Source of the DNA: Marmoricola sp. Leaf446
GTDB taxonomy: Bacteria; Actinomycetota; Actinomycetes; Propionibacteriales; Nocardioidaceae
Reading direction: 5' to 3'
Assembly (NCBI RefSeq): GCF_001424755.1
Contig: NZ_LMRF01000001.1
Span: 455,294 to 519,293, forward strand
DNA: 64,000 nucleotides
Shown here: piece after piece, positions 553 through 9,770 of the stretch
Position numbering within the stretch: the stretch's first letter is position 1
How the letters are laid out: each line of letters opens with the position of its first letter
The notes under the pieces: model-generated
What the model was told of the DNA's origin: nothing
Seen by the model: the letters and a program-made list of their open reading frames with translations, nothing else
Database searches by the model: none
Made by a program: the position numbers and the translations under genes

Positions 553-1326
553 CTAGGAGACGGGCTGCTTCCGGGGCGGGAGGGGGACGAACATCGAGGT
601 GCGCTCGGCGTACTCCGGGTAGCCCTCGCGCTGCATCATCGTCTTCTCCAGCAGCTTGGCGCCGGTGGCGAAGACGAGGAAGTAGGTCATCACGGCCGGG
701 GAGAGGACCGTGGCCAGCCCGACCAGGCCGCCGCCGAGGCCGACGAGCCAGATGCCCCACCACACGCAGGCGTCGCCGAAGTAGTTCGGGTGCCGGGTGT
801 AGCGCCACAGGCCCTGGTCCATGACCTTCGGCCGCGACTCCTTCGGCTGCTTCTTGTACGCCGCCAGCTGGGCGTCGCCGACGGTCTCGAAGACCAGCCC
901 GACGGCCCACACCACCACGCCGACGGCGACCACCCACCACCACCGGGTCTCGGTCACCGCGGCCACCTGCACGGGCAGCGAGACGAACCACATGGCGACC
1001 CCCTGGGTCAGGAACACCCGGGTGACGGCGTAGGAGAACGGCTTGCCGTCGAGCAGCTCGGCGTAGCGCGGGTCCTCCTCGCCGCTCTGCAGCAGGCGGG
1101 TCAGGGTGTGCCGGGCCAGGCGCAGGCCCCACACGCCGACCATCGCCAGCAGCAGCCAGCGCACCGGGGCGTCGCCGAGCGCGGCGCAGACGACGGCGAC
1201 GAGCACGAACCCGGTGCCCCAGGCGGCGTCGACCACCACGACCTGTCGGCGCCGGCGGGCGACGAGGGCGGTCACGGTCATCAGGGCCGCGACCGCGAGG
1301 GCCGAGGCGAGGAGGACGGTCAGCAC
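553..1326 (-). CDS. DUF1295 / steroid-5-alpha-reductase-like integral membrane protein
   Basis: The product is 257 aa with several hydrophobic helices. The C-terminal half carries the family signature RYTRHPNYFGD, which resembles the NADPH-binding end of steroid 5-alpha reductases and isoprenylcysteine methyltransferases. It starts at GTG 1326, one base after the stop of the upstream methyltransferase gene, so it is almost certainly cotranscribed. A similar membrane protein (Rv0446c) lies beside sigK and ufaA1 in Mycobacterium tuberculosis. A role in reducing or tailoring a membrane lipid made by the neighbouring enzymes is inference; no substrate can be read from the sequence. Confidence 0.85.
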   Translation of the reverse strand: MLTVLLASALAVAALMTVTALVARRRRQVVVVDAAWGTGFVLVAVVCAALGDAPVRWLLLAMVGVWGLRLARHTLTRLLQSGEEDPRYAELLDGKPFSYAVTRVFLTQGVAMWFVSLPVQVAAVTETRWWWVVAVGVVVWAVGLVFETVGDAQLAAYKKQPKESRPKVMDQGLWRYTRHPNYFGDACVWWGIWLVGLGGGLVGLATVLSPAVMTYFLVFATGAKLLEKTMMQREGYPEYAERTSMFVPLPPRKQPVS

Positions 1327-1327
1327 G

Positions 1328-2656
1328 TCAGGAGTGTCGCACCGCGGGCAGCGTGTGCGCGGCTCCGGGCCGCACCATGAGGATCTGGTCGACGCCCATG
1401 CGGCCGTCGCGGAAGGCCATCGCGCCGCCGACGAGGTAGAGCCGCCACACCCGGACGACCTCCTCGCTGGTCAGCTCGGTGAGCCGGTCGAGGTTGCGCT
1501 CGAAGTTCTCCAGCCAGCCCGCCACCGTCTTGACGTAGTGCTCGCGCATCGCGTGGACGTCGCGCACCTCGAGCCCCCCGCGCTCGAGGAACGCGACGGT
1601 CTCGCCGACCGGTCGCATCGTCATGTCGGGGGCGATGAAGGACTCGATGAAGGGACCGCCGCCGGGGTGGCCCTGACGCCCGCCCGCCCGCGACATCTGC
1701 TGGACCAGCACCCGGCCGCCGGGGCGCACGGCGTCGTGGAGCACCTGCGCGTAGGTGCCGTAGTTGCGCTCGCCGACGTGCTCGCCCATCTCCAGCGAGC
1801 CGACGGCGTCGAAGGGGCCGGCGCCACGGCCGTGGGCCTCGGGGACCTCGCGGTAGTCCTGGAGCCGGATCTCGACCCGGTCCTCCAGCCCGCGCTCGGC
1901 GATCCGGGCGTCGATGAACTTCTTCTGCTCCGCGGCGATGGTCACGCCGACCACCTGGGCGCCGAAGTGCTCGGCGGCGTGCAGCGACAGCGAGCCCCAG
2001 CCGCAGCCGACGTCGAGGAAGCGCATCCCGGGCTCGAGGCCGAGCTTGGTGCAGACGAGGTCGAGCTTGTCGCGCTGCGCGTCCTCCACGGTGTACGCCG
2101 GGTCGTCGCTGGTGTGGTAGCCGCAGGAGTAGGCCATCTGCGGCTCGAGGATCAGCGAGTAGAACTCGTTGGACAGGTCGTAGTGGTGGCTGATCGCGCG
2201 GCGGTCGCGCAGCTTGCTGTGCAGCCGGCCCTTGACCTGGGCCTGGGAGTCGGGGGTCCGCGGCGGGCGACCCACGGCGCCGACGTCCACGGCGGTGCGC
2301 AGCGCCCGGGCGAAGGCAGCGGGCGAGGGGCGCACGCCCGACAGCCCGCGCTCGGCGGCGACGGCCCAGACGTGGGTCAGCGCCTCGTCGAGGTCGTGGT
2401 GGACCTCGAGCTCGCCGGTGACGTAGGCCTGCGCGGCCCCGAGCTCGCCCGGGTGCCACAGCAGCCGGCGGATGGCGTCGGGGGAGCGCAGCTCGACGAG
2501 CGGCGCCTCGGCGGGGCCGGTCTCCGAGCCGTCCCAGGCGCGCAGCCGCACCGGCAGGTCGCCGCGGACGAAGGGACGCAGCGCCTCGGCCAGCCGCTGG
2601 GCCACCCCGGCGTCGGTCGGTCGGGCGTCGGTCGGTCGCTCCTGGGTCGCGGTCAC
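1328..2656 (-). CDS. Cyclopropane-fatty-acid-synthase-type SAM methyltransferase (paralogue 1)
   Basis: The product is 442 aa. The frame is open further upstream, but GTG 2656 overlaps the stop of the preceding gene (GTGA) and gives the normal family length. HHYDLSNEFY is at about residues 157-166. YSCGYH carries Cys178, the position of the bicarbonate-site Cys of E. coli Cfa, and the SAM site FLDVGCGWG is at 213-221. The C-terminal third is divergent: where classical enzymes have WINKYIFP this one has FIESFIAPDM. The family transfers a methyl group from SAM to the double bond of phospholipid acyl chains, giving cyclopropane, methyl or methylene products; which one is made here is unknown. 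Confidence 0.88.
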   Translation of the reverse strand: MTATQERPTDARPTDAGVAQRLAEALRPFVRGDLPVRLRAWDGSETGPAEAPLVELRSPDAIRRLLWHPGELGAAQAYVTGELEVHHDLDEALTHVWAVAAERGLSGVRPSPAAFARALRTAVDVGAVGRPPRTPDSQAQVKGRLHSKLRDRRAISHHYDLSNEFYSLILEPQMAYSCGYHTSDDPAYTVEDAQRDKLDLVCTKLGLEPGMRFLDVGCGWGSLSLHAAEHFGAQVVGVTIAAEQKKFIDARIAERGLEDRVEIRLQDYREVPEAHGRGAGPFDAVGSLEMGEHVGERNYGTYAQVLHDAVRPGGRVLVQQMSRAGGRQGHPGGGPFIESFIAPDMTMRPVGETVAFLERGGLEVRDVHAMREHYVKTVAGWLENFERNLDRLTELTSEEVVRVWRLYLVGGAMAFRDGRMGVDQILMVRPGAAHTLPAVRHS

Positions 2657-8182: not shown

Positions 8183-9736
8183 CTACGAGACCGTGACGAC
8201 GACGGTCTGGATGCCCGTCGAGCCGGCCGGGAACGGGGTCGCTCGGTCGGCCGTCTGCACCTCGCCACGGGCGTCGGTGGCGCGCACCGCGAGCGTGTAG
8301 GTGCCGGGCGTGGCGTCCCAGGGCAGGAACCACTGGCGCCAGTAGACCGAGCCGGCGTCGGGGCCGAGCTCGGCCTCCTGCCACGGGTTGTCGCCGCCCT
8401 CGCCGTCGTCGATGCGGACCTCGACCTTGGCCACGCCGTCGGGCTGCGCCCAGGCGACACCGCCGATCACGGTGCTGCCGGCGTCGATGTTGTTCAGCGC
8501 CTTGGGGGTGTCGATGCGGCTGGACAGGCGGATCGGTGCGTCGGTGGCCCACTTGCGCTCGGTCCAGTAGGCCTCCTGCTCGGCGTACGTCGTCAGGGTG
8601 AGGCGCTCGAGCCACTTGGTCGAGCCGACGTAGCCGTAGATGCCCGGGGTCAGCAGCCGCACCGGGAAGCCGTGCTCGCGCGGGAGCGGCTCGCCGTTCA
8701 TGCCGAACACGACCAGGGAGTCGCGGCCGTCCAGGGCCACGTCGAGCGGGGTGGAGATGGTGAACCCGTCGACCGCGGTGGAGAGGATCTGGTCGGCCTT
8801 CGTGCCGTCGATGCCGGCGCGGTCGAGCACCTCGCGCAGCGGTACGCCGAGCCAGCGGGCCGAGCCGAGCAGGTTGCCGCCGACCTCGTTGCTGACACAG
8901 GTCATGGTGATGTCCTTCTCCACGACCTCCATCTGCGTGAGCTCGTCGAAGGTCAGCGTGACCTCGCGCTCGACGTCGCCGTCGATGGTCAGGGTCCAGC
9001 CCTCGACGTCCACGGCGGGCACCGTGAGGTTGGTGTCGACGCGGTAGAAGCTCGCGTTGGGGGTGACGAACGGCGTGATCGCGTCGTAGGTCACCTCGAG
9101 GCCGTCGGCCAGCGGGGGCAGCGGCCGGCGCGCGGCGGGCAGCGCGATGTCGGTGATCCGCTCCTTGGCCCGGATCAGCAGCTGACCGGTGCCGCCGACG
9201 ACGGCCGCGAGCACGGCGGTCGCGCCCGCGCCGACGAGGAACCCGCGGCGGCTGGCGCCCCGGCCCGGCTCGGAGTCGATGCGGGCCCCGCGGGTGCCGG
9301 TGCCGCCGCTCGCGCGGGTGAGGAACGCCAGCACGGCCAGGCCGACGACCGCGGTGGCGACCGCCGGGAGGGCGTCGAGGGGGCCTGCGGCCGGCTGCAC
9401 CAGCGCGGCCAGCCCTGCCAGGGCGACCAGCACCATCAGCATCGCGACGCCCAGCCCGAAGCGGCGCCGGGCCACCAGGCCCGCCACGCCGGCGAACAGC
9501 AGCGCCACGACGAGGACGCTGCCGATCAGCACCGGCTTGTCGGCGCTGCCGAGCTCGCGCACCGCCCAGACCTTGACCGGCGTGGGCGTCAGGTTGATCA
9601 CCGCCGTCCCGACGGCGAGCACGGGCGAGGACGCCGGGTTGGTCAGCGCCGCGACGAGGTGGCCGGCGGCGGTGCCGCCGAGGGCGGCCAGCAGGCCGGC
9701 GACGAACGAGGACAGCGCGGGGCGGGGACGTGGCAT
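8183..9736 (-). CDS. Membrane-anchored molybdopterin-dependent oxidoreductase, sulfite-oxidase family
   Basis: The product is 517 aa from ATG 9736. Four hydrophobic helices (about 8-30, 66-90, 96-116, 122-140) are followed by a twin-arginine motif ASRRGFLVG (Arg163-Arg164) leading into a fifth helix (166-184). The extracytoplasmic part is a sulfite-oxidase-like Moco domain with TMTC (Cys280, the expected Mo ligand) and EHGFPVRLLTPGIYGY, then a dimerisation-type beta domain ending near WQEAELGP. This matches the actinobacterial family with five helices and a Moco domain that needs both Sec and Tat (SCO3746 type). Substrate unknown. The adjacent promoter suggests a leaderless mRNA, which would explain the missing ribosome site. 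Confidence 0.9.
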   Translation of the reverse strand: MPRPRPALSSFVAGLLAALGGTAAGHLVAALTNPASSPVLAVGTAVINLTPTPVKVWAVRELGSADKPVLIGSVLVVALLFAGVAGLVARRRFGLGVAMLMVLVALAGLAALVQPAAGPLDALPAVATAVVGLAVLAFLTRASGGTGTRGARIDSEPGRGASRRGFLVGAGATAVLAAVVGGTGQLLIRAKERITDIALPAARRPLPPLADGLEVTYDAITPFVTPNASFYRVDTNLTVPAVDVEGWTLTIDGDVEREVTLTFDELTQMEVVEKDITMTCVSNEVGGNLLGSARWLGVPLREVLDRAGIDGTKADQILSTAVDGFTISTPLDVALDGRDSLVVFGMNGEPLPREHGFPVRLLTPGIYGYVGSTKWLERLTLTTYAEQEAYWTERKWATDAPIRLSSRIDTPKALNNIDAGSTVIGGVAWAQPDGVAKVEVRIDDGEGGDNPWQEAELGPDAGSVYWRQWFLPWDATPGTYTLAVRATDARGEVQTADRATPFPAGSTGIQTVVVTVS

Positions 9737-9742
9737 GCCGGT

Positions 9743-9770
9743 GGTTCGGCGCGGTGCGGCGACCGGATGG
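9743..9770 (-). promoter_or_regulatory. SigK-type leaderless promoter of the molybdopterin oxidoreductase
   Basis: On the minus strand CCATCC (9770-9765) is followed after exactly 16 bases by CGAACC (9748-9743). The last -10 base is 6 bases from ATG 9736, so transcription would begin at or next to the start codon. The boxes and spacer match those before the fasciclin gene. Confidence 0.8.

What the first reader, a model, noticed from the sequence alone, without database searches (positions are those of the whole stretch)
553..9770. A complete SigK regulon in one block: Mo enzyme, fasciclin lipoprotein, sigma/anti-sigma and lipid-methylation genes
In M. tuberculosis the SigK regulon is split between the mpt70/mpt83 region and the Rv0449c-sigK region. 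Here the counterparts are consecutive on one strand, with 4-bp overlaps from sigK through both methyltransferases and one base before DUF1295. A Sec/Tat-type molybdopterin oxidoreductase is added at the head. This suggests one envelope stress system: a periplasmic redox enzyme, a surface adhesin-like protein, and enzymes that methylate and oxidise membrane acyl chains. Similar gene sets answer singlet oxygen in Rhodobacter; whether this one answers oxidants, sulfite or another signal is open.
Basis: partly seen in the sequence, partly recalled or inferred. Interest (0 to 1): 0.78.

Follow-up and report, generated by a model that had tools for sequence, protein, structure and literature searches.

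The report
SigK operon for furan membrane lipids
An unnamed bacterium of the actinobacterial kind carries, behind two matching promoters of the stress switch SigK, a secreted molybdenum enzyme, a surface fasciclin protein, the switch itself and enzymes that most likely turn membrane fats into furan fats; a similar cargo is used by unrelated bacteria against light-made reactive oxygen, which gives a testable job to a regulon whose purpose is unknown.

Summary
The block is real: eight ORFs on the minus strand (553-9736), not nine genes, because FAD and DUF1365 are one fused protein. Two near-identical SigK-type promoters (CCATCC-N15-CCGAA) stand before the Mo enzyme and before fasciclin; the second would also drive sigK, rskA and the lipid genes. 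A strict motif occurs four times in the 3.8 Mb genome; the other two sites precede a glutathione peroxidase and an alpha/beta hydrolase, so the regulon is probably not complete in one block. In 37 of 37 fetched same-family loci with a close Mo match, Mo, fasciclin, sigK and rskA lie together; 22 also carry the lipid tail. Cassettes placed elsewhere mostly carry such a promoter (16 of 24 loci, three of them in-block). The lipid genes match UfaM, UfaD and UfaO, which make furan fatty acids in Rhodobacter sphaeroides under the singlet-oxygen sigma factor RpoE, whose regulon also holds a fasciclin. Best reading: a SigK-driven furan-fatty-acid and envelope-defence operon. SigK control is likely, the furan product probable, the trigger open. 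The SigK cysteine switch of M. tuberculosis is absent. Nothing was measured in cells.

The parts
9744..9771 (-). SigK-type promoter 1 (CCCATCC-N15-CCGAAC); -10 box ends 8 bases before the Mo start, so a leaderless or nearly leaderless mRNA is expected
   Evidence: >=10 of 11 core bases upstream of Mo in 42 of 61 loci against 14 of 610 control stretches; 31 of 38 in the close loci plus window
8183..9736 (-). molybdopterin oxidoreductase, 517 aa: four or five hydrophobic segments, an invariant RR (163-164) before the last one (Tat-like), then a sulfite-oxidase-fold domain with invariant Cys280
8138..8165 (-). SigK-type promoter 2 (CCCATCC-N15-CCGAAC), before fasciclin; predicted to drive fasciclin-sigK-rskA and the lipid genes (autoregulation)
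   Evidence: >=10 of 11 in 43 of 51 loci against 9 of 510 controls; before sigK 1 of 48, rskA 0 of 48, in-block FAD 0 of 23; 36 of 38 in the close loci plus window
7452..8102 (-). MPT83-like fasciclin protein, 216 aa, with a lipobox-like Cys25 (lipobox by reading)
   Evidence: PF02469, 8.3e-32
6766..7407 (-). ECF sigma factor SigK, 213 aa; lacks both Cys of the M. tuberculosis disulfide
   Evidence: NF007228, 253.2 bits, cut-off 226
5999..6769 (-). anti-sigma factor RskA, 256 aa, one hydrophobic segment, HxxxCxxC zinc-type motif in the N-terminal part
3939..6002 (-). fused UfaD-like FAD desaturase and UfaO-like DUF1365 protein, 687 aa
2653..3942 (-). CMAS1, UfaM-like fatty acyl methyltransferase, 429 aa, with Ser/Gln at E. 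coli CFAS C139/H266
1328..2656 (-). CMAS2, second fatty acyl methyltransferase, 442 aa; accessory, role unresolved
553..1326 (-). DUF1295 membrane protein, 257 aa (steroid 5-alpha-reductase-like superfamily)

Best explanation
The block is a self-amplifying SigK regulon core whose metabolic output is furan fatty acids. When RskA lets go of SigK, SigK transcribes from two twin promoters: one gives the exported Mo enzyme, the other gives fasciclin and, by read-through, sigK, rskA and the lipid genes. CMAS1 (UfaM-like) methylates the double bond of membrane 18:1 chains, the FAD half of the fusion (UfaD-like) desaturates the product to a methylated diene, and the DUF1365 half (UfaO-like) adds O2 to close the furan ring; the fusion would pass the reactive diene straight on. 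CMAS2 and DUF1295 tailor the chain. Dienes and furans in the membrane, the secreted fasciclin and a glutathione peroxidase under the same promoter would blunt singlet oxygen or lipid peroxides; the Mo enzyme would act on oxidised protein or sulfur compounds outside the membrane. Shown here: anatomy, promoter sequences, conservation, homology. Inferred: SigK binding, products, trigger, and the roles of the Mo enzyme, CMAS2, DUF1295 and fasciclin.
For: Twin promoters with equal N15 spacers, enriched before Mo (42 of 61 against 14 of 610) and fasciclin (43 of 51 against 9 of 510) but not before sigK (1 of 48), rskA (0 of 48) or in-block FAD (0 of 23). Detached cassettes carry the promoter: 16 of 24 FAD genes against 9 of 480 controls; the eight misses are 3 in-block fusions, 2 alphaproteobacteria, 2 loci at 8 and 9 of 11, and Rhodococcus L076, where a site precedes the hydrolase gene at the operon head. 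FAD-DUF1365-CMAS1 stay together in 29 of 32 phylum-wide DUF1365 loci. The fusion aligns end to end with the FAD (38% over 436 aa) and DUF1365 (30% over 236 aa) proteins beside RpoE-ChrR in Rhodobacter sp. SY28-1, where FAD-DUF1365-MFS-DUF3833-SDR matches the R. sphaeroides RSP1091-1087 operon in order and size (sizes from PMC7380195 passages). CMAS1 shares Ser/Gln with the photolyase-linked methylase of Rhodovulum (42% identical), unlike E. coli CFAS and the BfaB-like paralogue. The R. sphaeroides RpoE regulon table lists RSP_1091, RSP_1090, RSP_2144 and a fasciclin, RSP_1409 (PMC7074977 passages).
Against: No transcript, binding or lipid data for this organism. DUF1365 identity to the Rhodobacter protein is only 30%. 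R. sphaeroides itself was not in hand; relatives stand in. M. tuberculosis UfaA1 (Rv0447c) is reported to make 10-methylstearate in vitro (cited in PMC5660069). In M. kansasii only two fasciclin genes, weakly, and not the lipid cassette or dipZ were light-induced (PMC9861118 section 10). 15 of 37 close loci have Mo-fasciclin-sigK-rskA without the lipid tail, so lipid chemistry is not the only purpose. The GPx promoter is found in only 4 of 20 relatives. In the phylum sample the promoter before FAD reached 10 of 11 in only 5 of 9 same-class loci (controls 29 of 600), and outside the class the cassette stands without SigK in 21 of 21 stretches. The strict genome-wide motif was drawn from sites that include the two block sites, so those two match by construction.
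Confidence: 0.68

Rival explanations
1. The lipid cassette makes cyclopropane or 10-methyl-branched (tuberculostearic-type) fatty acids for membrane stiffness; FAD and DUF1295 are reductases and DUF1365 is an accessory protein.
For: PMC5660069 (passages) cites in vitro synthesis of 10-methylstearate by M. tuberculosis UfaA1, the product of Rv0447c; that this gene is the CMAS1 counterpart is recalled, no call compared them. CMAS2's best-scoring NCBIfam models are CfaB and CFAS, below their cut-offs.
Against: The genome has a separate BfaA/BfaB-like pair for that product: a FAD_binding_4 protein followed by a CMAS with Cys/His at the two positions. The block's FAD protein is of the amine-oxidase type. 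CMAS1 has Ser/Gln, not the residues of CFAS or the BfaB-like protein. DUF1365 is UfaO's domain, and UfaO is reported necessary and sufficient for furan formation from the diene (PMC7380195 section 13).
Confidence: 0.17
2. The core function is extracytoplasmic redox repair: Mo enzyme plus fasciclin under SigK-RskA, with the lipid genes a frequent passenger.
For: Mo-fasciclin-sigK-rskA is kept in 37 of 37 close loci, the lipid tail in 22; of 23 more distant Mo loci 13 have fasciclin and 10 SigK nearby.
Against: Cassettes placed elsewhere mostly carry the same promoter (16 of 24), so they look like regulon members, not passengers; fasciclin also sits beside the cassette in Paracoccus zhejiangensis and Qingshengfaniella, with no Mo relative in the fetched stretch.
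Confidence: 0.1
3. The regulon answers thiol or disulfide redox through the SigK cysteine pair, as proposed for M. tuberculosis, rather than singlet oxygen or lipid oxidation.
For: SigK-RskA redox switch reported for M. tuberculosis (described in PMC7509140 section 3).
Against: Both cysteines are absent in the window; the RLRDC cysteine is seen in only 3 of 47 fetched loci with SigK and RskA (L063, L064, L072). RskA keeps HxxxCxxC in 47 of 47, so a zinc-thiol sensor in RskA is not excluded.
Confidence: 0.05

Closest known systems
Mycobacterial SigK regulon (mpt83/mpt70 and the Rv0449c-sigK locus)
   Same: SigK and RskA family membership; mpt83-sigK-rskA cassette with a SigK site, described as conserved even in Gram-negatives (PMC7509140 sections 3 and 12); FAD, DUF1365, CMAS and DUF1295 genes at the M. 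tuberculosis sigK locus (recalled).
   Different: All in one block, sigK upstream of the lipid genes, FAD and DUF1365 fused, a second CMAS, a Mo enzyme with its own twin promoter; SigK cysteines missing; RskA with HxxxCxxC, which the M. tuberculosis RskA chain 4nqw_B lacks in the aligned stretch.
RpoE-ChrR singlet-oxygen regulon of Rhodobacter sphaeroides (UfaM, UfaD, UfaO, fasciclin RSP_1409)
   Same: UfaD, UfaO and UfaM relatives and a fasciclin under one stress sigma factor (PMC7074977 table passages; PMC7380195 passages).
   Different: Different anti-sigma family (no ChrR cupin), different promoter, no MFS, DUF3833, SDR or photolyase gene in the block; Mo enzyme, CMAS2 and DUF1295 added.
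R. capsulatus 'rpoE-chrR' locus
   Same: Reported to be closer to M. tuberculosis SigK and RskA than to R. sphaeroides RpoE and ChrR, induced by singlet oxygen, next to a glutathione peroxidase (PMC7074977 passages). So a SigK-like, singlet-oxygen-induced pair is already in print. The window's genome has a SigK-type site before a glutathione peroxidase.
   Different: No homologues of RSP1087-1091 there, by the same paper.
Arabidopsis AtUFAMD1
   Same: One protein similar to two furan-pathway enzymes (UfaM and UfaD; PMC10940516 passages).
   Different: Here UfaD is fused to UfaO, and UfaM is separate.
BfaA/BfaB 10-methylstearate pathway
   Same: FAD protein next to a CMAS methylase, 4-base overlaps (PMC5660069 passages).
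   Different: Other FAD family; a BfaAB-like pair exists elsewhere in the genome.

Membership tests
SigK (ECF sigma factor) | passes the curated SigK subfamily model | tested here: met
   NF007228 253.2 bits, cut-off 226; best PDB match is M. tuberculosis SigK 4nqw_A, 5.5e-43
SigK (ECF sigma factor) | cysteine pair at M. tuberculosis 133/183 (reported redox switch; not universal) | tested here: not met
   aligned residues are Ala and His; PMC7509140 section 11 reports natural SigK without the pair
SigK (ECF sigma factor) | placement in ECF18 or ECF19 | not tested
   no ECF classification was run
RskA | RskA_C domain, one TM segment, directly downstream of sigK | tested here: met
   PF10099 78.7 bits, cut-off 29.4; NF052375 194.7, cut-off 100; one hydrophobic segment
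RskA | RskA_N domain over cut-off | tested here: not met
   PF22618 20.2 bits, cut-off 27; zf-HC2 29.2, cut-off 22.2 instead
SigK regulon | SigK-type promoter before the target genes | tested here: met
   (sequence only; the motif was recalled, not taken from an opened paper)
SigK regulon | SigK-dependent transcription | not testable with these tools
   needs RNA data
UfaD | homology and gene-order link to DUF1365 and a UfaM-type methylase | tested here: met
   38% over 436 aa to the Rhodobacter SY28-1 protein; order conserved
UfaO | DUF1365 domain | tested here: met
   PF07103 185.5 bits, cut-off 25
UfaD/UfaO | conversion of methylated 18:1 to diene and furan | not testable with these tools
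   lipid analysis needed
UfaM | Ser and Gln at E. coli CFAS C139 and H266 (signature proposed in this report from the photolyase-linked methylase and cassette methylases) | tested here: met
   CMAS1 Ser or Ala in 45 of 45, Gln in 44 of 45 sequences, window included; Rhodovulum L247 Ser/Gln; E. coli CFAS, L250 and the BfaB-like protein Cys/His
RpoE-ChrR system | ChrR cupin domain in the anti-sigma factor | tested here: not met
   no cupin match for RskA; the ChrR proteins of L134, L135 and L078 have it
SorA, SorT, SoxC sulfite dehydrogenases or MsrP | curated equivalog cut-off | tested here: not met
   SoxC 120.1 of 420, SorA 119.1 of 600, SorT 108.8 of 570, MsrP 43.4 of 207 bits
BfaA/BfaB | FAD_binding_4 partner and Cys/His in the methylase (Cys/His taken from the genome's own BfaB-like protein) | tested here: not met
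   block FAD is PF01593; CMAS1 Ser/Gln, CMAS2 Cys/Gln

The most novel reading that the evidence does not exclude
SigK-RskA regulons across the actinobacterial class, the mycobacterial MPT83/MPT70 regulon included, are a photo-oxidative membrane defence that carries the same cargo as the alphaproteobacterial RpoE-ChrR regulon: furan fatty acids made by UfaM and, in this block, a one-polypeptide UfaD-UfaO, a secreted fasciclin that may bind a carotenoid or lipid and quench singlet oxygen, a glutathione peroxidase, and an exported Mo repair enzyme. Two different anti-sigma types would then have converged on one response.
Probability: 0.4. Interest if true: 0.82.

Novelty: new variant of a known kind. 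Interest (0 to 1): 0.62.

Why it matters
The stimuli of the SigK regulon are called obscure (PMC9861118 section 10). Matching its lipid genes to the furan fatty acid pathway, and its fasciclin to one in a singlet-oxygen regulon, gives a concrete product and a concrete trigger (light plus photosensitiser) to test in harmless actinobacteria. The UfaD-UfaO fusion offers a single protein for studying UfaO, whose cofactor and mechanism are unknown (PMC7380195 section 13). A balance made here (inference): methylated diene + O2 = furan + H2O, so UfaO would need no outside reductant, which fits the report that none had to be added.

Tried and rejected
Mo enzyme as a plain sulfite dehydrogenase or MsrP: not filed there, scores far below all four cut-offs. 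Of the ten loose-motif sites, those in L008-L012 were set aside because they miss the stricter pattern; the coding-frame check did not help, since spurious frames cover true sites too (L004 among them). L007 also misses the strict pattern (N16) and is kept only as a candidate. 10-methylstearate as product: set lower after the BfaAB-like pair was found. GPx as a general target: no, 4 of 20 relatives (20 of the 76 genomes with a match were looked at). In one search the count of 6 of 30 includes L101, an artefact (its FAD start is off the contig); the other five are in the class. In one search the CMAS2 column mixes in CMAS1 genes where no CMAS2 exists and is not used. L078's methyltransferase looks interrupted and is only described; it has Ser but not Gln in the piece read. 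R. sphaeroides did not come up among the 80 loci. Not held: Veyrier 2008 and Dufour 2008, so whether they already report the Mo enzyme, or the cassette under SigK beyond mycobacteria, is unknown to me. Paper searches: (open-licence PMC papers only); no listed paper was seen to tie SigK to furan fatty acids, but few papers were opened (PMC7509140, PMC6852236, PMC7380195, PMC10940516, PMC7074977, PMC9861118, PMC5660069, PMC7477208), as passages or single sections.

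
Full report
OBSERVATION. The eight ORFs lie on the minus strand between 9736 and 553: Mo oxidoreductase 517 aa, fasciclin protein 216 aa, SigK 213 aa, RskA 256 aa, FAD amine-oxidase-like plus DUF1365 in one frame 687 aa, CMAS 429 aa, CMAS 442 aa, DUF1295 257 aa; Pfam agrees for each. The fusion is seen in 22 of 22 fetched Mo loci that have both; of 24 other DUF1365 loci 5 are fused and 19 separate.

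PROMOTERS. I recalled the mycobacterial SigK motif and looked for it; the pattern comes from no paper opened here. Exact CCATCC-N14-18-CCGAA occurs twice in the 64 kb window, both before block genes, both with N15: before Mo, with the -10 box 8 bases from the ATG, and before fasciclin, 36 bases from its ATG. Over 60 fetched loci and the window, the best site in the stretch from 220 bases upstream to 60 inside scored at least 10 of 11 before Mo in 42 of 61 (a further 11 at 9; controls 14 of 610, a further 96 at 9) and before fasciclin in 43 of 51 (4 at 9; controls 9 of 510, 54 at 9). Before sigK it was 1 of 48, rskA 0 of 48, in-block FAD 0 of 23, CMAS1 2 of 23 (controls 7 of 480, 6 of 480, 2 of 230, 2 of 230) (for these four the stretch began 160 bases upstream). 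In the 37 close loci plus the window: Mo 31 of 38, fasciclin 36 of 38. So transcription is expected from two points, with sigK downstream of a SigK promoter.

GENOME-WIDE. The loose pattern gives 10 sites against 3 for the pattern read backwards. The strict pattern CCMATCC-R-N14-CSGAAY, drawn from the site table (which includes the two block sites), gives 4 against 0 (one search gave the same four): Mo, fasciclin, a glutathione peroxidase (C1:567453-567932; PF00255) and an alpha/beta hydrolase near C1:689.8 kb whose start codon lies 8 bases past the site. A further candidate, a hydrolase with N16 spacing (L007), is 39% identical (72 of 187 aligned positions) to the hydrolase that heads the FAD-DUF1365 operon on a Rhodococcus plasmid, where a relaxed-motif site lies just upstream. 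GPx genes of 20 relatives: 4 with at least 10 of 11, antisense strand 0 of 20.

CONSERVATION. The Mo protein matched 146 of 196 genomes of the order at 1e-20. I fetched 60 of the listed matches. In the 37 same-family loci with close Mo matches (L015-L051) Mo, fasciclin, SigK and RskA lie together in 37 of 37 (in L019 Mo is divergent) and the lipid tail follows in 22 of 37. Of 23 more distant Mo loci (L052-L074, several cut by contig ends) 13 have fasciclin and 10 have SigK within the stretch.

THE CASSETTE FOLLOWS SIGK. DUF1365 occurs in 85 of 196 genomes of the order. Of 24 loci fetched around it (20) or from plasmids (4), 16 have a site of at least 10 of 11 before FAD (controls 9 of 480). 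The eight without: three are fusions directly behind RskA (L083, L085, L099), two are alphaproteobacterial (L078, L079), L092 has 9 and L095 8 of 11, and L076 carries a site before the hydrolase in front of FAD. In a phylum-wide sample DUF1365 is in 35 of 296 genomes. Of the 32 of these loci that I fetched, FAD-DUF1365-CMAS1 are together in 29; SigK with RskA lies in the stretch in 8 of the 11 from the same class and 0 of 21 from outside it; DUF1295 in 8 of 11 and 0 of 21. The promoter before FAD reached 10 of 11 in 5 of 9 class loci with FAD and in 1 of 21 outside (L101, an artefact); controls 29 of 600.

WHAT THE CASSETTE IS. Lemke et al. 2020 (PMC7380195; passages, section 3 first part, section 13) report that UfaM methylates 18:1, UfaD (RSP1091) desaturates the product to 11Me-10t,12t-18:2 and UfaO (RSP1090, DUF1365) makes the furan with O2. 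Beside ChrR and RpoE in Rhodobacter sp. SY28-1 (L164) stand FAD 431 aa, DUF1365 249 aa, MFS 416 aa, a DUF3833 relative and SDR 246 aa, fitting the RSP1091-1087 sizes in the paper. The window fusion aligns with the first two at 38% over 436 aa and 30% over 236 aa. CMAS1: at the E. coli CFAS positions C139 and H266 (bicarbonate ligands, recalled) it has Ser and Gln, as do the methylase downstream of a photolyase in Rhodovulum kholense (L247; 42% identical to CMAS1, 32% to CMAS2; photolyase by reading its sequence), one methylase each in two Rhodobacter genomes (L248, L249) and those in the Paracoccus, Rhizobium, Rhodococcus and Tsukamurella cassettes; E. coli CFAS, a second Rhodobacter enzyme (L250) and the BfaB-like protein of this genome have Cys and His. 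Over 45 CMAS1 sequences, window included: Ser or Ala 45, Gln 44. RSP_2143 and RSP_2144 are phrA and cfaS in the R. sphaeroides table (PMC7074977 passage). CMAS2 has Cys and Gln and remains unassigned.

CARGO SHARED WITH THE SINGLET-OXYGEN REGULON. PMC7074977 (passages) lists in the R. sphaeroides RpoE regulon RSP_2144, RSP_1091, RSP_1090 and a fasciclin, RSP_1409; says full RpoE activation needs RSP_1090/91 and CfaS; and says the R. capsulatus RpoE and ChrR are closer to M. tuberculosis SigK and RskA, are singlet-oxygen induced, and lie next to a glutathione peroxidase. Fasciclin also sits with the cassette in Paracoccus zhejiangensis, beside an RskA-type anti-sigma factor (PF10099) and an ECF factor below the SigK cut-off (138.2 of 226 bits), and in Qingshengfaniella beside ChrR; neither has the SigK-type motif before fasciclin or FAD (best 7 and 8 of 11) nor a Mo relative in the stretch. 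In M. kansasii 20 minutes of light induced two fasciclin genes with putative SigK sites, weakly; the lipid cassette was not among the 14 genes (PMC9861118 section 10). Algal fasciclins bind astaxanthin and quench singlet oxygen; that paper says no other fasciclin was known to its authors to bind lipids (PMC7477208 passages).

SENSOR. SigK here lacks both M. tuberculosis cysteines. Among 47 fetched loci with both proteins only L063, L064 and L072 show the C-terminal RLRDC cysteine; RskA has HxxxCxxC in 47 of 47. So the SigK disulfide switch cannot apply here; RskA zinc-thiol chemistry or proteolysis are the candidates, untested.

MO ENZYME. PF00174; best PDB matches are sulfite dehydrogenases, but the curated cut-offs of all four matching models are missed. 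RR163-164 and Cys280 are invariant in 35 of 35 aligned sequences; four or five hydrophobic segments precede the catalytic domain. An exported, membrane-anchored enzyme of unknown substrate.

VERDICT. Observation confirmed. SigK control about 0.85, furan product about 0.7, singlet oxygen or lipid oxidation as trigger about 0.5 (my estimates). The SigK regulon, the mpt83-sigK-rskA cassette and a SigK-like singlet-oxygen locus in R. capsulatus are known. New, as far as my searches show (the two 2008 papers not held), are the Mo enzyme with a twin promoter, the UfaD-UfaO fusion, and reading the SigK cassette as a furan pathway.

Noticed in passing
G000:C1:567453-567932 (L005): Glutathione peroxidase with a strict SigK-type site upstream, about 100 kb from the block.
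   Followed up: partly
G000:C1 near 689832-689859 (L006): Alpha/beta hydrolase (PF07859) whose start codon lies 8 bases past a strict SigK-type site, suggesting a leaderless mRNA.
   Followed up: partly
G000:C1:1109800-1114800 (L246): BfaA/BfaB-like pair (FAD_binding_4 protein then CMAS) elsewhere in the genome, probable 10-methylstearate genes.
   Followed up: yes
L133 (Paracoccus zhejiangensis plasmid): RskA-type anti-sigma and ECF factor divergent from fasciclin-FAD-DUF1365-CMAS-MFS-SDR and a tryptophan-rich sensory protein: an alphaproteobacterial mix of the SigK and RpoE layouts on a mobilizable plasmid.
   Followed up: partly
L107, L108: Outside the class, a Mo relative (40-43%) lies about 6.5 and 4.3 kb upstream of a FAD-DUF1365-CMAS1 cassette with no SigK in the stretch and no SigK-type site.
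   Followed up: no
L096: Rearranged relative: SigK-RskA, a SigK-type site, FAD-DUF1365-DUF1295, with Mo and fasciclin convergent and their own site.
   Followed up: no
L077 (Tsukamurella plasmid): FAD-DUF1365-CMAS, a lipocalin family gene, then SigK and its anti-sigma factor, behind a SigK-type site; the lipocalin is a possible further lipid-handling member.
   Followed up: no
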